NCBI GenBank assembly: GCA_947305245.1
Contig: CAMZDG010000009.1
Span: forward strand, 1-64,000
Direction of reading: 5' to 3'
Source of the DNA: an uncultured Lachnospiraceae bacterium
Lineage (GTDB): Bacteria > Bacillota > Clostridia > Lachnospirales > Lachnospiraceae
Length of the DNA: 64,000 bases
Of this stretch, positions 11,372-22,198 are shown piece after piece (the stretch's first letter is position 1; each line of letters starts with the position of its first letter). Below the pieces are notes generated by a model. That model did no database searches. It was not told the DNA's origin and saw only the letters and a list, made by a program, of their open reading frames with translations. The translations under genes and the position numbers were made by a program.

Positions 11372-11443
11372 GTCACGTCCTCCTTTCGCCGGCAAATGCG
11401 AAAACTTCGGATTTCCACGACCTTACAATATGTCCATGATATC

Positions 11444-11472
11444 ATTATACTTCATCTCAAGCCAATTTACAA
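11444..11472 (-). promoter_or_regulatory. Promoter for the GGDEF/EAL gene
   Basis: Minus-strand TTGTAA (11467-11472) and TATAAT (11444-11449) are 17 bases apart, 73 bases before the start codon. The perfect -10 box and ideal spacing support it. Confidence 0.6.
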
Positions 11473-11509
11473 TCTTCTAATTCTCACGCGAAAACCTTTC
11501 CGGTCCTCC

Positions 11510-11579
11510 GATCACCAATCGCTGTCCAAAGTCCTCCGACCCCCGGGCACTCAAACCCTCGGATCACCAATCGCTGTCC
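11510..11579. repeat. 18-bp direct repeat at a gene 3' end
   Basis: GATCACCAATCGCTGTCC occurs at 11510-11527 and again at 11562-11579. The second copy contains the stop codon and last codons of the gene ending at 11564; the first lies 36 bases beyond the end of that gene. It looks like a short duplication of the gene end. Confidence 0.8.
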
Positions 11580-13296: not shown

Positions 13297-13977
13297 TCAC
13301 TTGTTCCTCGTATACCTGCACTCAGGGTACCCCGTGCACCCCCAGAAGTCTCCGTATCTCCCGCTCTTAAGCCGCAGCACGCACCCACAGCGCGGGCACT
13401 TCTTCACGTTCAGCGCCGCCTCCGAAGGATTTGCCATCTCCTTCGCAAGACATTCAAAAACCTTCTGATTCATCCGACAGTCATTCAGCGCCCTGTGCGC
13501 CCCGTCCGAGCCAATGCCATAATGCAGCGCCAGATCCGTCAGCTTATAATGATGCAGTCCCGGAAGATATGCCTGCGCAATCTGCAACGTGTCAACATAA
13601 TTATTTCCAATCGTCTTCCCAAATAACTTCAACGCATCGCGGCATATAAACTTCATGTCAAAAGTATGTATGTTGTGTCCAACCAGAACCTGATCCCCGG
13701 CGAACTTAAGGAAGTCCTCCAGCGCCCGATCAAAGGTCGGTGCATCCGCCACCATGTCATCCGTGATCCCATTCACGTCACTGGCATAAATCGGTATGTG
13801 CACGCACGGATTGACCAAAGTCGAAAACTCATCCGCGACCTCTCCGCCCACAACCTTAACGGCAGAGATCTCCACCACCTCGTCCTTCAAGACGGAAATT
13901 CCAGTCGTCTCAAGATCAAAAACCACATAATCTTTCACATAGACATGTAACAGCTTTCCAGCCTTTGCAGATAACAT
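13297..13977 (-). CDS. DnaQ-type 3'-5' exonuclease with C-terminal zinc ribbon
   Basis: The 226-residue protein is a DEDDh exonuclease: FDLETTG (D21, E23), GHNIHTFDMKF (about 98) and GAHRALNDCR (about 161) hold the catalytic acids and His. The last 35 residues are a topoisomerase-type zinc ribbon (CPRCGC ... CTGYPECRY). Such DnaQ-like proteins act in proofreading or repair; the zinc ribbon suggests binding to single-stranded DNA. GGAGGTGG precedes the ATG. A diverged copy of its last 50 codons lies about 2 kb away at 15351-15509. Confidence 0.85.
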   Translation of the reverse strand: MLSAKAGKLLHVYVKDYVVFDLETTGISVLKDEVVEISAVKVVGGEVADEFSTLVNPCVHIPIYASDVNGITDDMVADAPTFDRALEDFLKFAGDQVLVGHNIHTFDMKFICRDALKLFGKTIGNNYVDTLQIAQAYLPGLHHYKLTDLALHYGIGSDGAHRALNDCRMNQKVFECLAKEMANPSEAALNVKKCPRCGCVLRLKSGRYGDFWGCTGYPECRYTRNK

Positions 13978-15350: not shown

Positions 15351-15509
15351 TTACTTGTTCCTCGTATACCTGCACTCCGGGTACCCCGTGCACCTCCAAA
15401 AGTCTTCGTATCTTCCGCTCTTAAGCCTCAGTACGCACCCACAGCGCGGGCACTTCTTCACATTCAGCGCCGACTCCGAAGGATTTGCCATCTCCTTCGC
15501 CAAACATTC
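15351..15509 (-). pseudogene. Fragment copy of the exonuclease zinc-ribbon end
   Basis: Read leftward this gives ECLAKEMANPSESALNVKK and on through the same zinc ribbon and RNK stop as the exonuclease gene at 13297, with a few substitutions (GDFWGC becomes EDFWRC). The similarity runs past the stop into the flanking GAAAAATGAAGGAAAGC motif. A stop codon lies just upstream in frame and no ribosome site precedes the internal ATG. It is therefore a dead duplicate, most likely made by recombination through the flanking repeat. Confidence 0.8.
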
Positions 15510-15545: not shown

Positions 15546-15746
15546 CTATGTTTTACTACACTTGTTGCAATTATCGCAGACGAGCCTACCGCCCGAGTAA
15601 ACAGTGAAAGGACCCGTCACACGGCAACTGGAGCAAGTGCGAGTAATCTTTTTAGGTATGCTATCATTTCCGCCTTTATTTGTGCCGCCCAAAACTTCTT
15701 CAAGTTCTTTTTCCGACAATACTTTACTACTATTTTTATCGTCCAT
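15546..15746 (-). CDS. Double-glycine-leader peptide with CxxC zinc-ribbon-like core
   Basis: The 66-residue peptide has a leader MDDKNSSKVLSEKELEEVLGG ending in Gly-Gly, the cleavage signature of C39-type ABC exporters. The core has CSSC and CDNCNKC pairs. This is the form of a bacteriocin or RiPP precursor, but the cysteine spacing also fits a small zinc ribbon. GGGGG lies five bases before the ATG. Its first 11 bases overlap the end of the upstream peptide gene (15736-15996), so the two are translationally coupled. No exporter or modifying enzyme is in the window. Confidence 0.7.
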   Translation of the reverse strand: MDDKNSSKVLSEKELEEVLGGTNKGGNDSIPKKITRTCSSCRVTGPFTVYSGGRLVCDNCNKCSKT

Positions 15747-15996
15747 CTTTTCCCCCTTGGTGCATATCTCTTATCATCTTAACGTAATCCCAGGTAACCA
15801 CCTCAGAGCTGGCTCCAAGCCCACCTGCCGCAGCAATGGCCTCCTCCTTAGTTGCGAAAGCCTCCCTTCGATCTCCAGTACGATCATCCAGCACCTCCCA
15901 AGGCTTGCGAGGATCCGAGCCAGGAATCTTTGATGCGTCTAAAATCATTCCGCCTGTTACTCCATCCAGCGCACTGTCATCTAACTTCTTTCCCAT
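15736..15996 (-). CDS. Double-glycine-leader peptide, 86 residues
   Basis: The product starts MGKKLDDSALDGVTGG, again a (L/V)-x-GG leader with the LDDSALDGV pattern, then a 70-residue hydrophilic core (Trp, Asp and Arg rich) without cysteine. The start is the ATG at 15996 because AGGAGG is nine bases upstream; the ATG at 16005 directly abuts that site. Role is unknown: secreted peptide, bacteriocin or peptide substrate of a maturase elsewhere. The leader similarity to its two neighbours suggests one export route. Confidence 0.65.
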   Translation of the reverse strand: MGKKLDDSALDGVTGGMILDASKIPGSDPRKPWEVLDDRTGDRREAFATKEEAIAAAGGLGASSEVVTWDYVKMIRDMHQGGKDGR

Positions 15997-16049
15997 ATCA
16001 ATCATCCTCCTATGTCCTTCTTTCCAATATCAATCATCTTCCTATGTCC
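15986..16049. repeat. 32-bp tandem duplication carrying a ribosome site and start codons
   Basis: Units 15986-16017 and 16018-16049 differ at two bases. Each contains, on the minus strand, AGGAGG (or AGGAAG), ATGATTGATAT and GGAAAGAAG. The downstream unit supplies the start of the 86-residue peptide; the upstream one forms the last codons of the reading frame ahead of it. Confidence 0.85.
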
Positions 16050-16333: not shown

Positions 16334-16378
16334 ATTCCTAGCACCTAGAACTCATCGCCAACCATGGAGGTACACACT

Positions 16379-16558
16379 ATGAGCGAACTCGAAAAAACCC
16401 TTGAAAACGCGAAGTTGAATGAAAGCGAACTTGAAGACGTTCCTGGCGGGCTTTTTAATCCTGCTGATAAGCAGTACATTCCCGTGGTATGCGGAGGCTG
16501 CAGAAGACATTTTGTAATAACCAGCGACACAAAAGAATATATTTGCACCTGCGGATAA
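16379..16558 (+). CDS. Double-glycine-leader peptide with four cysteines
   Basis: The 59-residue peptide reads MSELEKTLENAKLNESELED then VPGG, a leader close to those at 15.5-16 kb. The core has CGGC and a C-terminal CTCG, a possible zinc knuckle or thioether/disulfide pattern. GGAGG lies eight bases before the ATG at 16379, and a consensus promoter lies upstream, so it looks expressed. It is on the opposite strand from the other two, so they form separate units. Confidence 0.7.
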   Translation: MSELEKTLENAKLNESELEDVPGGLFNPADKQYIPVVCGGCRRHFVITSDTKEYICTCG

Positions 16559-16639: not shown

Positions 16640-17050
16640 TCAAACCAGTATCCCTTCAAAATGATCCATCTCATGCTGGATGATTTCTGCCGTGAATCCT
16701 GAATACTTTCCGTGCTTTGGCTTAAAGTCGCGATCCAGGTAATCCACCTCTATCTCCTGCCACCTTGTGCACGGCCTTACCCCGTCCAGGGACAGGCATC
16801 CCTCTTCCGTCTCATACTGGCCTGTCCTGTTCGTTATGACGGGATTCACCATGGGAAACATAAAGGGTCCCATCGCCACAACGAGAATTCGCTTTCTTTC
16901 TCCTATCATGTTCGCCGCCATACCGACGCACCTGTCCTGATTCGCCTTGAGCGTGTCCAGCAGGTCCGTTATCACCTGCCCGTCGGCCTCGGTCGCGGTC
17001 ACGGACTTTTGCCGCAGAAACATGGGGTCGCGAACGATCTTTCTAACCAT
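16640..17050 (-). CDS. Peptide deformylase-like protein
   Basis: The 136-residue protein has deformylase motif 2 (EGCLSL, metal Cys) and motif 3 (QHEMDHFEGIL, metal His pair and Glu). Deformylases remove formyl from new protein N-termini. Motif 1, normally GxGxAAxQ, reads VGMAANMIG, with Asn where the oxyanion-hole Gln is expected. The protein is slightly short for the family. AGGGG precedes the ATG. It stands alone, away from fmt or other usual partners, so it may be a second, specialised deformylase. Confidence 0.8.
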   Translation of the reverse strand: MVRKIVRDPMFLRQKSVTATEADGQVITDLLDTLKANQDRCVGMAANMIGERKRILVVAMGPFMFPMVNPVITNRTGQYETEEGCLSLDGVRPCTRWQEIEVDYLDRDFKPKHGKYSGFTAEIIQHEMDHFEGILV

Positions 17051-17084
17051 TATTCTTTACCCCTCCAAATCAGTTAAGCTACTC

Positions 17085-17182
17085 ATAAGAAAAATAGCCG
17101 CCAACTATTCGGAGTAGTTGACGGCTAAACGCTAGTTTAGCACAAACTATCGAGGGTAGCCGCCTCTATGGCTTTCCCCTTT
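17085..17182 (-). ncRNA. Predicted structured small RNA, repeat copy 1
   Basis: A complete transcription unit of about 97 bases is predicted: promoter at 17189-17217, conserved head GGGGAAAGCCATAGAGGCGG (plus CTACCCTCGATAG), a perfect middle hairpin GCTAAAC/GTTTAGC at 17124-17141, and a terminator with a 13-bp stem (TAGCCGTCAACTA with TAGTTGGCGGCTA, 17095-17127) followed by U-rich sequence. The 8-mer GGCGGCTA occurs both in the head (17157-17164) and as the terminator 3' arm, so the head could compete for the terminator 5' arm. No open reading frame is conserved with copy 2. The element lies in the 17051-17323 gap. Confidence 0.65.
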
Positions 17183-17188
17183 AACAAG

Positions 17189-17217
17189 ACTATAGCATAC
17201 AATTATTCGCCATGCAA
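17189..17217 (-). promoter_or_regulatory. Promoter of small RNA copy 1
   Basis: Minus-strand TTGCAT (17212-17217) and TATAGT (17189-17194) are 17 bases apart. Both boxes and the spacing are kept in copy 2 at 21.9 kb. Confidence 0.7.
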
Positions 17218-17323
17218 GAGAATTCTTCGCGAATAGGCATGTTGCTGAAGCTGATACATTTAAGTATTTTTGTTTCACTTATAAGATATCACCTATTCCC
17301 TTTTATTCTTCCGACCCAATCAG

Positions 17324-18649
17324 TTATTCATTCTCATTCCTGATTTCTGTTGTTTCGCTGCCATAGCCATATATAAATGCGATAACTTCAAAAAACGCAT
17401 TCATAAGTTCGCGCGTATTATTCTCATTTGTGTTATCTAAAATGTCTCTTTCATATCCGTCTACAGTGATGCAGACATCCCAATGGCCAATGTGTGTCTT
17501 ACGGTTTACTAAAGCTATCTTGTTAATATGCTCTAGATAACACGCAAGATTAGGCTCTAATGGTGAACCATAATACAAGCAAGACTTAGTAAGTATCAAT
17601 CCATACTTCTTTGACAAGAAGCTTAGCAAAACAACCTCCTCTTCATTAACACCTTTAGCATAATGCTCAATGGATTGTTTGCATTTTTTTGAAAACTCCT
17701 TATCACCCGGGGAAAAAACGCGGTAATCTTTTTGGAATATCTCTTTCGTTTTTACATACTCAACAATTTCTCGGGTATCATGTATCGGCACACATGTATC
17801 ATTTTCTTTGATTATCTCTATCATGTCTGGTTTACGGATTATTCTGACTCCGCTATTGTTTCTATCACCAGAAGATACCTCCAATGCGACACTCTTCGCT
17901 ACAGGTTTGGTTAAATCGATTGGATTCTTTTTAGCATTTCTTGATAATTTTATTAATTCGCATGGTACAAGAAAGAGAGTCGAGTAGATGGTGCCCTTAA
18001 ACGGTGCAAATACATAATACGGCTCAATAAAATAACATGGAATACAATATACACACGCAACAAATGTAGAATAAAAGAAAAACGGGACATGAGTCAGCCT
18101 ATACTTAAGTGTCTCTTCTTTTTTTGTTGGCTTTTTGAAACTCGAATCCAAGCCAAAATATTTTCCGATTAACAAAGAAAAACAAATTCCCACCAATTCA
18201 AGCTCATCAAAGAAATAAGCAAATTCAGCGCACAGAAGAATCGCCATATTAAAGAGTAATGAACTAGGCATATCAGGATCTAACCGCACAATGTCATCAT
18301 TATGTTTTTTTTGAAGGCGCCGATTCCATCCATTCATCATGGATTTATAAAGCAACCGCGTCAGCAATCCGAAGATTGGCACCATAATTGCGAACAGCAA
18401 ACCAGAATTAATGAATAGCACATTATCGATATCACTGAGAAAATAATAGTAAAAGATCAATTCAAATAGCATTATGCCATAATACATCACCACAGCTAAG
18501 CCGACGGATACGCCATCATAGAATCCCGCATAGCGCACTTGTCGATTATTTGCTTCACAATTTGCTATAGGCAACCCGTGTTTGCGATATACAATCCACC
18601 CAATGATTTCAAAAACAGTAAAAAACAAGACTGCAATTTCATATATCAT
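17324..18649 (-). CDS. Uncharacterised multi-pass membrane protein
   Basis: The 441-residue protein has about six hydrophobic segments in its first 250 residues (e.g. IYEIAVLFFTVFEIIGWIVY, VGLAVVMYYGIMLFELIFYY, FFYSTFVACVYCIPCYFI), then a soluble C-terminal region of about 190 residues (from VRIIRKPDMIEIIKEN). No family is recognised. Codon use is AT-rich compared with the flanking core genes. The start at 18649 follows GAGGTGG; an upstream GTG at 18658 lies inside that site. The gene to its right ends 34 bases upstream, so the two may form an operon. Confidence 0.65.
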   Translation of the reverse strand: MIYEIAVLFFTVFEIIGWIVYRKHGLPIANCEANNRQVRYAGFYDGVSVGLAVVMYYGIMLFELIFYYYFLSDIDNVLFINSGLLFAIMVPIFGLLTRLLYKSMMNGWNRRLQKKHNDDIVRLDPDMPSSLLFNMAILLCAEFAYFFDELELVGICFSLLIGKYFGLDSSFKKPTKKEETLKYRLTHVPFFFYSTFVACVYCIPCYFIEPYYVFAPFKGTIYSTLFLVPCELIKLSRNAKKNPIDLTKPVAKSVALEVSSGDRNNSGVRIIRKPDMIEIIKENDTCVPIHDTREIVEYVKTKEIFQKDYRVFSPGDKEFSKKCKQSIEHYAKGVNEEEVVLLSFLSKKYGLILTKSCLYYGSPLEPNLACYLEHINKIALVNRKTHIGHWDVCITVDGYERDILDNTNENNTRELMNAFFEVIAFIYGYGSETTEIRNENE

Positions 18650-18683
18650 ACAATCCACCTCATTTCACATATTAAAACCATCA

Positions 18684-19445
18684 TCAAATCAACAGCTGCC
18701 AATCATCGGTCATGCATGTTTGAGGTGCCCTCAGCGCCCATTGCCCTTTTCCATATTTTTTAAACAATTTATACTCCAACTCCTCACATACCTTAGCAGG
18801 GCAACACTGCCATGACACATATACATCATCTCTGTTATCTGGAGTGATAGACCAATAGTCTCCCTTTTGAGCCCTGGCATCATAATTCAAGTTATAATAC
18901 TGCGTCAATCGCCATTTTACGCCCAAACTATATGCTGCCCTGCCACATTTCATTTTTCTATTTCCAAGCATTAAAACATAAACGCCCGGTTCACTATTCG
19001 CCATCGTAATTGCTTCTTTTAACGGAATGTATTCTTTAATCTGAAAATCTTTAGGTTTCTTATTTGACGGCAATGCCTTTCCCGCATACTCTCTGTCTGT
19101 TGTTCGTTTTCTGTTCGCCGTTTCATTTCCGTCACTTGACGGGGATTGTGAACCCGATTTCACTGCGCGTGATGAAGCCGAACCTCTTGATGAATTACCA
19201 TTCTTTAAATATTCATTTGATTCATTAATGATTTCCTTGTAATGTCTTTTTCTCTCCTCGGATTGTTTTTTCTCTTCATATGACATTCCAGGACTATTCT
19301 TGGCTTTTTCATTTTCTCGGTTGAGTCTGCGCACGGCTTCCTCTTTGTTCTTCCTGGCAACCTCTTTGTTAACTCGCTCTACATTCTTTTCACCCTCAGA
19401 CACAACATATGATCCTACGCCTTTAACAATATCCCATATTGACAT
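18684..19445 (-). CDS. Protein with coiled-coil N-terminus and GIY-YIG-like C-terminal domain
   Basis: The 253 residues start with a charged helical region (EGEKNVERVNKEVARKNKEE to about 75), a Ser-rich linker (about 85-115), then a folded domain from about 140. There, GVYVLMLGNRKMKCGRA resembles the GIY...YIG core of T5orf172-type nucleases, with YIG replaced by CGR and a Glu in CEELEYKLFKKYG. Nuclease activity is uncertain because the core is altered. GGAGG lies seven bases before the ATG at 19445. AT-rich, part of the accessory block. Confidence 0.55.
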   Translation of the reverse strand: MSIWDIVKGVGSYVVSEGEKNVERVNKEVARKNKEEAVRRLNRENEKAKNSPGMSYEEKKQSEERKRHYKEIINESNEYLKNGNSSRGSASSRAVKSGSQSPSSDGNETANRKRTTDREYAGKALPSNKKPKDFQIKEYIPLKEAITMANSEPGVYVLMLGNRKMKCGRAAYSLGVKWRLTQYYNLNYDARAQKGDYWSITPDNRDDVYVSWQCCPAKVCEELEYKLFKKYGKGQWALRAPQTCMTDDWQLLI

Positions 19446-19733
19446 GCCATCACCTCCAAACAAAAAAGCATCTGAACTGGCCCTGCGGTCAATCCCGATG
19501 CTCTATATCACACATTGCAACTGGCTACCATTTTACAGGCCCTACTAGCTTTGCGTCGCAGCCTTTCGACTGTTTTGCTGATTCGTATTACTTTTCTATT
19601 TTGAAATTATTATAATTCAATCATGCGAATTCTGTCAAGGAAAGCATTAAGCCAAATAACTAAAACTCAAACACATACTTTATTCTGGTCATGCCTGCAT
19701 TTTGGGGTTTACATTAATATGCCTCATGAAAAA

Positions 19734-19784
19734 TAGCCGCCAACCATTCCCAGTAGTTGACGGCTAATACAAGAGAATTCTTTG
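19734..19784 (-). repeat. Deletion derivative of the small RNA element (copy 3)
   Basis: The terminator hairpin is present (arms 19734-19746 and 19754-19766, U-rich end kept) but is followed directly by AAGAGAATTCTTT, the sequence that in copy 1 lies beyond the -35 box. Promoter and RNA body are missing. It thus marks both ends of the repeat unit. The gap 19446-19826 holds nothing else that I can identify. Confidence 0.7.
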
Positions 19785-19826
19785 TAGAATTCATGCTTAT
19801 TTTGCAATTTTGTGCCCTCCAGGTCA

Positions 19827-20159
19827 TCAGTCAATGAACCCGTAGCTGTGAATCTCGATTGCGCCTTCCCTTTCAAGGTCCTTTTCCATGATGCCCTGCA
19901 CGGATTCCATAAATCCCTGATCCCATCCGTCCGAACTCAACCCTATGTCCGTTGGGCCTAAGCTGAACTGATGTCCATAAAGCATAAAGGTTGTTTCCAC
20001 AAATTTGGCCGGCCAGCCGGGATCCTGGTCCCATTTCATCTTTCTTTCAATAAACTTCAGCTTCCACATTACGCACAAGCGCCTAACTACCCGTTCTGCC
20101 CTCAGCCTGGCATCCGTGTCCTTGCAATTTTCTAGGTACTCGTTCTCTCTTTCCGTCAT
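19827..20159 (-). CDS. Hypothetical protein, 110 residues
   Basis: No family is recognised. The first half is a basic amphipathic helix region (DARLRAERVVRRLCVMWKLK), the second is acidic and ends in EIHSYGFID. A clear GGAGGG site lies before the ATG. It stands alone between a repeat element and flavodoxin genes. Confidence 0.6.
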   Translation of the reverse strand: MTERENEYLENCKDTDARLRAERVVRRLCVMWKLKFIERKMKWDQDPGWPAKFVETTFMLYGHQFSLGPTDIGLSSDGWDQGFMESVQGIMEKDLEREGAIEIHSYGFID

Positions 20160-20263
20160 GGTGCATCCCTCCTTTGTCCTGGCTTATCATTCCTTACAAG
20201 CCCATCATAAGGCAAGGCACCCATTTATGACAGCAACCATGCGTTGAAAATCGCAAAGCACAT

Positions 20264-20704
20264 TCAATCCAGGCTTGAATAGAATTCCACTGCCCCTTCG
20301 ATCTCCCCTTCATCTGGGTGACCCTTGGCCAGCCCGCCGACCAGTTTAAACGGCCCGAAGGTGTCAAACCCAAGGCAGAGGTACTCCCCCAGACTTTTGC
20401 AGTTCTTCTCCTCCGTAACCTTCTTGATAGAGTTAAAGTAGCCCTTCATCGGATTCCCACAGGTTGCGATGAAGAATGTCTCCCTGCCCTCCGGGAGGTT
20501 GACGCTCGCGAAATACAGCACCTGCTTTGCGAACCCGCCATAATAAATCCCTGACGCGAACCCGATTCTGTCATATTCGGACAGATTCACCTCCGTTTTC
20601 TCCGTCACATCAATCAACGTCACCTCAAACCGCTCCGCTATGGCCTTAAGGAGCTTCTCCGTGTTTCCATGGTGCCTTGAATAATACGCAATTGCAGTCT
20701 TCAT
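20264..20704 (-). CDS. Flavodoxin-domain protein
   Basis: The 146-residue protein opens MKTAIAYYSRHHGNTEKL, the FMN phosphate-binding loop of short flavodoxins (YYSRHHGNT). FASGIYYGGF and TCGNPMKGY match the later flavin-contacting loops. It should carry an FMN and act as a low-potential electron carrier or NADPH-independent reductase. AGGATGA precedes the ATG. A second flavodoxin domain is encoded 50 bases upstream in the SMI1 fusion gene. Confidence 0.8.
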   Translation of the reverse strand: MKTAIAYYSRHHGNTEKLLKAIAERFEVTLIDVTEKTEVNLSEYDRIGFASGIYYGGFAKQVLYFASVNLPEGRETFFIATCGNPMKGYFNSIKKVTEEKNCKSLGEYLCLGFDTFGPFKLVGGLAKGHPDEGEIEGAVEFYSSLD

Positions 20705-20754
20705 TCATCCTTCCTCCGTGTGATTCTATCCAGCATTCCGTCAGTCAATGAATC

Positions 20755-21702
20755 CTAATCCATGATCTTCTTCGCGAACTCTGCCACGGCTTTCATGTCC
20801 GCTTCGTCAGGTTTTCCTTTATGGATTCCCTTAAATTCGCCCTTGCAGTGAAACTCCCTTTCATCCATCGGTATGCCTACCTTATCAGCTTCCGCTTTCA
20901 CTTTCTTATAAGTGGAATTCAGCATCGCCGCCGATCCAAAGTTTACGATCTTTCCAACCAAATCCTTGTCAAGCGACTTGACGAAATCCCGCACCTCGGG
21001 ATCGATGTTGAATGCATAATAAGAATTGCCCAGGAACAACACATCGACCGCTTCCGTAACTGGCGTCGTTATCGGCAAAGCCTCCACGCCGATCGCATTG
21101 GCAACGGCCTCAGCCAACCGTTTCGTGTTGCCTGTTTTTGTGTAGTATCGAACTGCTGCTTTCATCGGTCTTTCCTCCTTTGTCAATGGGTTTTCCTCCT
21201 TACTCAGCGGTTTTTCATCTATTTTCTCATTCCGATAAATCATTCCCAGAAATTCTGCCAGATTCTTCGCGACAAAACGCTCTTCATTGTCAAACTCATT
21301 GTCGATCCTGATGATGATCGGTTCTCCGTCCTCAGACACTGTGCGGAAGTCCATGTAATACATGTCGTGCCCAGCGGACTGCGTTTCGCCAAAAGGAATC
21401 CCGACGTCAGGGTATTCCCATTCATCCCGCCAGTTTTCAAACATATTCTCCAGCGCGCCGTATCCACCCTGCTCCGGGGCGATGCCATAGATTGTGGTTA
21501 GCCAGCTTTCTTCATAATCATCCGCTATGACGCCGCCATTCCAAGTTTTCAAAAGCTCCACGTACGAAGGTGGAAACCGATACCCCAGTTTTTCCTCTGC
21601 GCGCCTGATCATTTCGTCCGTCGGGGGATCAAAATGAAACTTCTTTCCCCAATCACTTTCTTTGTCGAACAACTCAGTAACGTCAAAATCAAATGCCGAC
21701 AT
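20755..21702 (-). CDS. SMI1/KNR4 domain fused in frame to flavodoxin
   Basis: The 315-residue frame joins two unrelated domains. Residues 1-155 are SMI1/KNR4-like (AEEKLGYRFPPSYVELLKTW, then WNGG and GYGALENMFENW), a fold used as immunity proteins against polymorphic toxins. Residues 180-315 are a flavodoxin (MKAAVRYYTKTGNTKRLAEA). The joint KPLSKEENPLTKEERPM holds two copies of AAGGAGGAAA; the second is an ideal ribosome site for the internal ATG at 21165. The flavodoxin can therefore be made alone (20755-21165) as well as in fusion, and the fusion probably arose from loss of the SMI1 stop codon. Start at 21702 follows GGGAGGAG. Confidence 0.8.
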   Translation of the reverse strand: MSAFDFDVTELFDKESDWGKKFHFDPPTDEMIRRAEEKLGYRFPPSYVELLKTWNGGVIADDYEESWLTTIYGIAPEQGGYGALENMFENWRDEWEYPDVGIPFGETQSAGHDMYYMDFRTVSEDGEPIIIRIDNEFDNEERFVAKNLAEFLGMIYRNEKIDEKPLSKEENPLTKEERPMKAAVRYYTKTGNTKRLAEAVANAIGVEALPITTPVTEAVDVLFLGNSYYAFNIDPEVRDFVKSLDKDLVGKIVNFGSAAMLNSTYKKVKAEADKVGIPMDEREFHCKGEFKGIHKGKPDEADMKAVAEFAKKIMD

Positions 21703-21802
21703 TTCTTCTCCTCCCATTCCGTCCATTCCCCCATGAACTATTCCAATTATTGATTTTCATTGTCGCCCTTATTGGACTTTGTTACAAAGTTCTTAGGGAT
21801 GA

Positions 21803-21900
21803 AAAGAAATAGCCGCCAACTATCGCGAGTAGTTGACGGCTAATACATGATACATTAGTTTGATTCTATCGAGGGTAGCCGCCTCTTTGGCTTTCCCCTT
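21803..21900 (-). ncRNA. Predicted structured small RNA, repeat copy 2
   Basis: Same layout as copy 1: promoter 21907-21935, head AAGGGGAAAGCCAAAGAGGC followed by GGCTACCCTCGATAG, middle hairpin (CTAATGTA/TGTATTAG, about 21841-21859) and terminator (arms 21810-21822 and 21830-21842, identical to copy 1). The middle hairpin differs in sequence from copy 1 but still pairs, which supports a real RNA structure. It lies between the SMI1-flavodoxin gene and the small gene at 21941, on the same strand. Confidence 0.65.
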
Positions 21901-21906
21901 AATATG

Positions 21907-21935
21907 ACTATAGCATACAATTATTCGCTATGCAA
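21907..21935 (-). promoter_or_regulatory. Promoter of small RNA copy 2
   Basis: TTGCAT (21930-21935) and TATAGT (21907-21912) with 17-base spacing on the minus strand, the same boxes as copy 1. Confidence 0.7.
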
Positions 21936-21940
21936 GAGAG

Positions 21941-22198
21941 TTATTTTCTTTGCAAATACTTAGAAACGGCATCTACAATTGATGGATGCCATGCATCTGC
22001 ATCAAACACGGGTCCGCGAAATATCGTATATTGGGCTCCTTCTTTCGTGGTAAGCCAATGATTCCCATAACGCTCCTGAAGTCCCATCTCCTCTAAGATA
22101 AGATTTAATGCGTGAACATTTTTTACATTATGCCCCTTTTCATTAAGCTGACCAACGACTTCGCATTTATATAAATCACCCTGGTAATTGAATGGCAT
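21941..22198 (-). CDS. Hypothetical protein, 85 residues
   Basis: No family is recognised. The short protein is mixed in composition (YQGDLYKCEVVGQLNEKG, then NHWLTTKEGAQYTIF), without membrane segment or cysteine motif. GAAAGGGGG lies upstream of the ATG. AT-rich, in the accessory block. Its stop is six bases from the promoter of small RNA copy 2. Confidence 0.55.
   Translation of the reverse strand: MPFNYQGDLYKCEVVGQLNEKGHNVKNVHALNLILEEMGLQERYGNHWLTTKEGAQYTIFRGPVFDADAWHPSIVDAVSKYLQRK

What the first reader, a model, noticed from the sequence alone, without database searches (positions are those of the whole stretch)
17085..17217. Repeated small-RNA element with its own promoter and terminator
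Two units (17085-17217 and 21803-21935) share -35 TTGCAT, -10 TATAGT, 17-base spacing, a GGGGAAAGCC head and an identical 13-bp terminator stem. A third (19734-19784) has lost the body and promoter. All are on the minus strand within 5 kb. The layout resembles antitoxin RNAs of type I systems or regulatory attenuators, but no toxin frame is seen nearby.
Basis: partly seen in the sequence, partly recalled or inferred. Interest (0 to 1): 0.8.

Follow-up and report, generated by a model that had tools for sequence, protein, structure and literature searches.

The report
Toxin-less antitoxin RNA genes
The repeated element looks like the antitoxin RNA half of a small bacterial toxin-antitoxin cassette found in many gut Lachnospiraceae; in this stretch the toxin halves have been deleted while two antitoxin genes look intact.

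Summary
The repeats are real and far from chance: an RNA model built from other loci finds 21802-21903 (85.1 bits) and 17087-17184 (82.8 bits) on the minus strand, plus a terminator-only relic at 19726-19812 (37.3 bits). They look like antitoxin genes of a type I toxin-antitoxin family. The same genome has four complete copies in which a 32-33 aa hydrophobic peptide (Pfam Hol_Tox) is read convergently, its stop codon sitting on the antitoxin's terminator stem. A toxin remnant is present in the window: 21735-21812, plus strand, without the toxin's N-terminus. The RNA occurs in 46 of 200 genomes drawn from the family; no Rfam family matched the units I searched. Of 80 usable loci with a full antitoxin, 19 to 22 lack an intact toxin, with undecayed RNA scores; of 65 strong toxin matches 2 lack a full antitoxin. 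A feature I did not find described: toxin mRNA and antitoxin RNA start with the same 5' head, so the toxin mRNA's 5' end can pair with its own 3' end (49 of 51 predicted folds). New variant of a known kind; no transcript or toxicity was shown.

The parts
17087..17217 (-). Unit 1: toxin-less antitoxin RNA gene, promoter to terminator U-tract
   Evidence: (82.8 bits)
17212..17217 (-). unit 1 -35 box TTGCAT
   Evidence: sequence; consensus match only
17189..17194 (-). unit 1 -10 box TATAGT
   Evidence: sequence; (spacing 17)
17153..17182 (-). unit 1 conserved 5' head
   Evidence: sequence
17095..17127 (-). unit 1 terminator stem-loop, followed by U-rich tail to 17087
21802..21935 (-). Unit 2: antitoxin RNA gene with a broken toxin on the other strand
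   Evidence: (85.1 bits)
21930..21935 (-). unit 2 -35 box TTGCAT
   Evidence: sequence; consensus match only
21907..21912 (-). unit 2 -10 box TATAGT
   Evidence: sequence
21872..21900 (-). unit 2 conserved 5' head
   Evidence: sequence
21810..21842 (-). unit 2 terminator stem-loop; its last three bases are the complement of the toxin stop codon TAG
21735..21812 (+). toxin remnant: 25 codons of a Hol_Tox C-terminus plus stop; the toxin's N-terminus, ATG and Shine-Dalgarno site are missing
   Evidence: 15.3 bits; 45.1 bits
19734..19766 (-). Unit 3: terminator stem-loop only (relic)
   Evidence: 37.3 bits
19770..19782 (.). bases CAAGAGAATTCTT shared with the outer edge of unit 1's promoter (17215-17227), marking unit 3 as an internal deletion
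   Evidence: sequence

Best explanation
The units are the antitoxin halves of a small, multi-copy type I toxin-antitoxin cassette whose toxin halves have been deleted. In complete copies a peptide of about 30 aa is encoded on one strand and an antisense RNA of about 100 nt, with its own promoter and intrinsic terminator, is read convergently from the other; the antisense RNA covers the toxin mRNA's 3' region and (inferred) blocks or destroys it. The toxin mRNA also appears built to hold itself silent: its Shine-Dalgarno site sits in a CCCUCC/GGAGGG hairpin, and its 5' head is complementary to its own 3' end, because the antitoxin gene begins with a copy of the same head. Shown by sequence: the anatomy, the intact relatives, the loss of the toxin. 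Inferred: transcription, toxicity, membrane action, antisense action. In the window units 1 and 2 should still make an antitoxin RNA with no toxin in cis; unit 3 should make nothing.
For: Own genome: 7 places by blastn, 4 of them with a complete convergent peptide ORF. Three own-genome peptide variants score 25.8-27.1 bits in Pfam Hol_Tox, cut-off 23.3. Genus: R1 antitoxin in 43 of 101 genomes, 94 matches; of the 87 I classified (80 of the 87 non-own, plus 7 own) a script found 60 with an intact toxin ORF and SD, 18 truncated or disrupted, 7 none, 2 at contig ends. T-tract after the shared stem on the antitoxin strand in 54 of 56 loci, on the toxin strand in 1 of 56; after the complement of the head on the toxin strand in 39 of 48 (56 and 48 of the 60 intact loci fitted the script's patterns), which places the toxin mRNA's 3' end beyond the antitoxin gene. 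At least 10 head-tail pairs in 49 of 51 folds. Own head-tail duplexes are stronger than exchanged ones, also among 11 dissimilar loci (-44.5 vs -39.6 kcal/mol, none of 20000 permutations as low). A linker hairpin of 5 bp or more in 87% of 84 loci (80 distinct sequences) vs 35% of shuffles. Five viral contigs hold the antitoxin head, 4 of them with an open toxin frame.
Against: No expression, toxicity or interaction data. RNAalifold's covariation term on the 27-row alignment is small (-0.38; 4 of 17 pairs with a two-sided change), since head and stem hardly vary. Folds with shuffled tails still average 8.5 head-tail pairs, so the threshold of 10 is not strict by itself (observed mean 24.4). In 11 representative mRNAs the SD is predicted closed in the full form (unpaired 0.12) and in the 3'-trimmed form (0.00), so 3' trimming alone does not open the toxin start in these folds. 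In the whole-genome search two of the four intact own-genome toxins fall just below the Hol_Tox cut-off (22.4).
Confidence: 0.88

Rival explanations
1. Orphan antitoxins kept by selection: units 1 and 2 act in trans, protecting the cell against toxins of paralogous or incoming (phage, plasmid) cassettes.
For: Toxin-less loci with a full antitoxin are 19 to 22 of 80 and not decayed: model score medians 84.8 (60 intact), 84.05 (18 truncated), 81.9 (7 none), Mann-Whitney p 0.72. Of 65 toxin matches of 61 bits or more only 2 lack an antitoxin match of 45 bits or more beside them. Unit 1 has a 36-nt perfect complement in the C11:61211 toxin transcript. Unit 1's variable hairpin, 3 mismatches allowed, occurs in 3 of 138 genus genomes (own included), each time without a toxin. 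Antitoxin-only orz loci are common in E. coli and one is expressed (PMC11264685, section 9 read).
Against: Cognate pairs have 98-106 nt of perfect complement; unit 2 has at most 21 nt to any of the 4 resident intact ones. Published type I antitoxins are mostly module-specific, with exceptions such as RCd12 for RCd11 and some SprF cross-regulation (PMC6563280 sections 4 and 5 read; PMC6733600 passages). A promoter scan found no decay (8.5 intact, 8.4 and 8.1 toxin-less, shuffled 6.6 of 12) but it is uninformative: relic unit 3, which has lost its promoter, also scores 8. Toxin loss may be recent, and loss of the antitoxin alone would be harmful, which gives the same asymmetry without any benefit.
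Confidence: 0.3
2. Secondary use as promoter or attenuator: the orphan's promoter and leaky terminator now drive the same-strand gene downstream (peptide deformylase for unit 1, SMI1/KNR4-flavodoxin ORF for unit 2).
For: Start codons 36 and 99 nt beyond the unit in the same direction; neighbours identified. A same-strand start within 260 nt is seen in 9 of 25 toxin-less loci and 2 of 60 intact ones, though in intact loci the toxin gene fills that space.
Against: 16 of the 25 toxin-less loci have no such start; the terminators of units 1 and 2 keep a full stem and U-tract; the origin as antitoxin is clear.
Confidence: 0.12
3. Non-autonomous mobile repeat (MITE-like) with the heads as terminal inverted repeats, RNA function incidental.
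For: Several scattered copies per genome, heads are inverted repeats, deletion derivatives including one with the two heads back to back (L302).
Against: The promoters lie outside the heads; ORF, SD site, stop/stem overlap and linker hairpin are conserved. Transposase genes and target-site duplications were not looked for.
Confidence: 0.08

Closest known systems
Hol_Tox (PF16935) toxins; NCBIfam PepG1 (its pairing with SprF1 is recalled and in PMC6563280) as weak hit
   Same: Small hydrophobic peptide with charged C-terminus; three own-genome variants above the Pfam cut-off; PepG1 profile 19.6-21.9 bits.
   Different: PepG1 score far below its cut-off of 70; no functional test; no Rfam family over the units or over five intact loci searched.
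par/Fst of pAD1 (PMC7472228, passages seen)
   Same: Convergent toxin mRNA and short antisense RNA overlapping at a terminator, SD sequestered in the mRNA, a second shared sequence near the 5' ends.
   Different: Fst has DNA direct repeats (the RNAs are complementary there) and one bidirectional terminator; here the repeats are inverted, so both RNAs carry the same head, and the toxin strand seems to have its own terminator beyond the antitoxin gene.
AapA/IsoA of Helicobacter pylori, and hok/Sok (PMC6733600, passages seen)
   Same: Predicted 5'-3' long-distance pairing of the full toxin mRNA plus local SD hairpins.
   Different: Here the 3' partner is the complement of the antitoxin's own 5' head; trimming the 3' end does not free the SD in the predicted folds.
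C. difficile type I modules (PMC6563280, abstract and sections 4 and 5 read)
   Same: Convergent small hydrophobic toxin and antisense RNA in a clostridial host, several copies per genome.
   Different: The sections read describe C. difficile modules and mention TxpA- and Fst-like sequences in C. bolteae and C. asparagiforme, no such family; no sequence comparison with the C. difficile toxins was run here.
orz-only loci of E. coli (PMC11264685, section 9 read)
   Same: Antitoxin retained after toxin loss, orphan RNA seen on Northern.
   Different: Another family; the orz-only loci are highly similar to each other, whereas here many different breakpoints are seen.

Membership tests
type I toxin-antitoxin system | small hydrophobic toxin ORF | tested here: met
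   in 60 of 85 usable loci, 4 of them in the own genome; in the window only a remnant
type I toxin-antitoxin system | antisense RNA gene overlapping the toxin transcript, own promoter and terminator | tested here: met
   sequence level only, no transcript seen
type I toxin-antitoxin system | peptide is toxic and RNA neutralises it | not testable with these tools
   needs an expression assay
Hol_Tox PF16935 | score above curated cut-off | tested here: met
   three intact own-genome variants 25.8-27.1 vs 23.3; two of the four intact copies score 22.4; the window remnant scores 18.4 and 15.3, not met
par/Fst | direct repeats read by both RNAs | tested here: not met
   heads are inverted in DNA, same sense in both RNAs
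par/Fst | one bidirectional terminator | tested here: not met
   T-tract on the toxin strand after the shared stem in 1 of 56 loci
hok/AapA-like regulation | 5'-3' long-distance interaction in full-length mRNA | tested here: met
   predicted only: 49 of 51; 9 of the 60 intact loci were not folded because the script did not recognise the head; 3' end itself inferred
hok/AapA-like regulation | 3' processing frees the start site | tested here: inconclusive
   SD stays closed in trimmed folds of 11 loci
Rfam RNA families | match to a curated family | tested here: not met
   whole window at gathering; 17000-22000 and five loci at E up to 5: no family over the units

The most novel reading that the evidence does not exclude
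A Lachnospiraceae-wide type I cassette in which the antitoxin RNA is a head-mimic of the toxin mRNA: an inverted repeat gives both RNAs the same 5' head, so the mRNA locks its 5' end to its 3' end and the antitoxin can replace the mRNA's own head on that 3' end; toxin-less antitoxin genes, as in this window, are repeatedly generated and kept as standing protection against related cassettes.
Probability: 0.25. Interest if true: 0.7.

Novelty: new variant of a known kind. Interest (0 to 1): 0.5.

Why it matters
It assigns the repeats, and dozens of similar ones in gut Lachnospiraceae, to a toxin-antitoxin family whose RNA matched no Rfam model here, and offers many toxin losses with different breakpoints in which the question 'why keep an antitoxin without a toxin' can be tested. 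The shared 5' head suggests a way to couple mRNA self-inhibition and antisense recognition that I did not find described in my searches.

Tried and rejected
Rfam: only a c-di-GMP-I riboswitch (19513-19589, -) in the window; two near-threshold Clostridiales-1 hits lie beside, not on, own-genome copies. GenBank phages and PLSDB plasmids: no blastn match to unit 2 at E 0.01. tRNA genes in the window: none. Attenuator as origin: rejected, complete copies are convergent ORF-antisense pairs. Simple 3'-trimming switch: not supported by folds. Promoter scan as evidence of selection: dropped, relic unit 3 scores as high. Orthology of unit 1 with the G903 orphan: same neighbours (SMI1/KNR4 gene, exonuclease-like gene) but different junctions and orientation, so not claimed. 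Viral search with the terminator pattern: nothing. Literature: the listings of searches (titles and starts of abstracts, at most 25 papers each) showed nothing on this family or on identical 5' heads; PMC10903887, which names holin-like toxins, was not opened; the library lacks most subscription papers.

Full report
Observation. The two full units and the relic are where the finding puts them (repeats also). Promoter hexamers, 17-base spacing and the 13-bp stem are as stated. To test chance I built a covariance model (R1) from 27 antitoxin sequences that leave out the window copies; it finds unit 2 at 85.1 bits, unit 1 at 82.8 and unit 3 at 37.3 in the 64-kb window, with plus-strand echoes of the palindromic stem at 24.9, 18 and 14 bits.

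What it is. The window lies in a 3.34-Mb, 77-contig genome. The host is very probably a Lachnospiraceae: a congener's contig G046:C18 has the same length, 205,791, as a record titled Acetatifactor sp.; this is an inference. Blastn with unit 2 finds seven places; the four outside the window run on into a convergent ORF. Each encodes a 32-33 aa peptide such as MTMYVTYAELIQIGIFIVALIGLIYAIVKGKGK after a GGAGGG site, and its stop TAG is the first three bases of the antitoxin's stem. Three variants exceed the Pfam Hol_Tox cut-off; in the whole-genome search two of the four are over and two just under it. A further copy on C8 (14059) keeps only the toxin's 5' part. Unit 2 of the window keeps 25 toxin codons and the stop (21735-21812, +) without the N-terminus, ATG or SD; unit 1 keeps none.

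The family. By blastn 43 of 146 genomes of the 'relatives' set (own included) hold it, 42 in the genus and one elsewhere in the order. With R1: 43 of 101 genus genomes and 94 matches, 46 of 200 family genomes, 45 of 199 genera, 4 of 246 order genomes, all in the family, 4 of 348 phylum genomes, namely the own genome and three of one other family with at most 55.4 bits. An exact antitoxin-head pattern gave at least 119 stretches of named genomes, the scan stopping at its limit; of the 80 listed most are titled Lachnospiraceae or genera I know as such, a few are bins titled otherwise, such as Bacteroidales and Muribaculaceae (L065, L092), whose titles may be wrong. Five viral contigs hold it, four with an open toxin frame, one truncated.

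Toxin loss. I fetched 80 of the 87 non-own matches and classified them with the 7 own ones: intact 60, truncated or disrupted 18, none 7, contig edge 2. So 25 of 85 usable loci lack an intact toxin by script. Three of these (L220, L243, L249) may be intact with an odd or missing SD, and three (relic unit 3, L284, L286) score under 60 bits and are no full antitoxin. Among the 80 usable loci of 60 bits or more, 19 to 22 are toxin-less. The other seven matches, weak ones, were looked at: most keep only the terminator stem, L302 only the two heads, L303 is partial, L291 has toxin and stem without head; they are not in the count. Breakpoints vary, including internal deletions of the ORF (L214, L239, L264). 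Model scores do not fall in toxin-less loci (Mann-Whitney p 0.72). A promoter scan gave no fall either, but relic unit 3, without its promoter, scores just as high, so that scan says nothing. The converse is rare: of 65 toxin-profile matches of 61 bits or more, all but G022:C19 and G018:C45 lie beside an R1 match of 45 bits or more; the first belongs to a sister subfamily with its own 3' half, the second has only a terminator. This asymmetry is what harm from an unopposed toxin predicts, so it does not by itself prove a benefit of the orphans.

The shared head. Most of the 31 aligned toxin leaders start with a head like GGGAAACCAUAGAGCC..GGCGGCUUUACCCUCC just after a -10-like box (a few, such as L023, L031 and L044, do not), antitoxins with AAAAGGGAAAGCCAUAGAAGCGGCUACCCU or close to it: the same sense, hence an inverted repeat in DNA. 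On the toxin strand a T-tract follows the complement of the head in 39 of 48 loci and the shared stem in only 1 of 56, so the toxin mRNA probably runs through the whole antitoxin gene and its 5' head can pair with its 3' end. Predicted folds show at least 10 such pairs in 49 of 51 loci; 9 more intact loci could not be folded because the script did not find a head. Head and tail match within a locus better than between loci: 43 of 49, and in 11 dissimilar representatives -44.5 against -39.6 kcal/mol, none of 20000 permutations as low. The variable head base agrees in 42 of the 47 loci where it was readable on both sides (T/T 29, G/G 11, C/C 2, T/C 5); related loci are not independent. Replacing tails by shuffled ones drops head-tail pairs from 24.4 to 8.5 on average in the same 11 representatives (whose printed label says 20). 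Sister Hol_Tox subfamilies show leader against 3'-flank complementarity in part: more than 5 s.d. beyond shuffles in L287, L295, L297, L299; 1.9 to 3.3 s.d. in L288, L289, L290, L292, L306, where in all but L292 at least one of 100 shuffles did better; none in L296. Several of these sisters have a T-tract right after the stop-proximal stem on the toxin strand, so their mRNA may end before the head's complement. Against the simplest reading, the SD stays closed in the trimmed folds.

Between head and terminator lies a hypervariable hairpin: 80 distinct sequences in 84 loci, yet a helix of 5 bp or more in 87% against 35% of shuffles. It is a candidate specificity element (inference). R1's consensus structure does not contain it, and the covariation term of that structure is small.

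Do the window orphans act in trans? Cognate pairs share 98-106 nt of perfect complement; unit 1 shares 36 nt with the C11:61211 transcript, unit 2 at most 21 nt with any of the four resident ones. Published modules are mostly specific, with some cross-regulation (PMC6563280 sections 4 and 5; PMC6733600 passages), so I give this 0.3. Antitoxin-only loci with an expressed RNA are on record for orz (PMC11264685, section 9).

Verdict. Orphan antitoxin genes of a Hol_Tox type I family, a new variant by its shared-head layout; expression, toxicity and mechanism remain to be shown.

Noticed in passing
window 19513-19589 (-): c-di-GMP-I riboswitch (48.8 bits) upstream of ORF 18684-19463, with relic unit 3 about 145 nt further upstream on the same strand. 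C. difficile antitoxins RCd11/RCd12 are also associated with such riboswitches (PMC6563280); whether this is more than coincidence is open.
   Followed up: no
G000:C8:9744-9872 and 11430-11575 (L004 885-1013, 2571-2716): Two Clostridiales-1 RNA hits just under the gathering score (40.4 and 47.2 vs 48) lying beside the intact cassettes.
   Followed up: no
L302 (G036:C56:1487-1601): The two heads stand almost back to back with nothing left of ORF or stem between them: a deletion derivative that could form one long hairpin (by eye).
   Followed up: partly
L287-L292 (without L291), L295-L299, L306: Sister Hol_Tox subfamilies in the same genus, several with a T-tract on the toxin strand after the stop-proximal stem and with leader/3'-flank complementarity of their own.
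   Followed up: partly
window 20755-21726 (-): ORF joining an SMI1/KNR4 (SUKH) domain to a flavodoxin-like stretch (flavodoxin just under its cut-off); in G903 the SMI1 part is a separate 168-aa ORF flanked by two toxin-less cassettes.
   Followed up: partly
window 15353-15509 and 13297-13977 (-): A stretch similar to the 3' part of the neighbouring exonuclease-like ORF (named by eye), a partial duplication: the same piece of G903 matches both.
   Followed up: no
window 15546-15746 (-), 15736-16005 (-), 16364-16558 (+): Small ORFs with GG-type leader-like ends (for example ELEEVLGGTNKGG, ELEDVPGGLFNP) that could be peptide precursors; judged by eye only.
   Followed up: no
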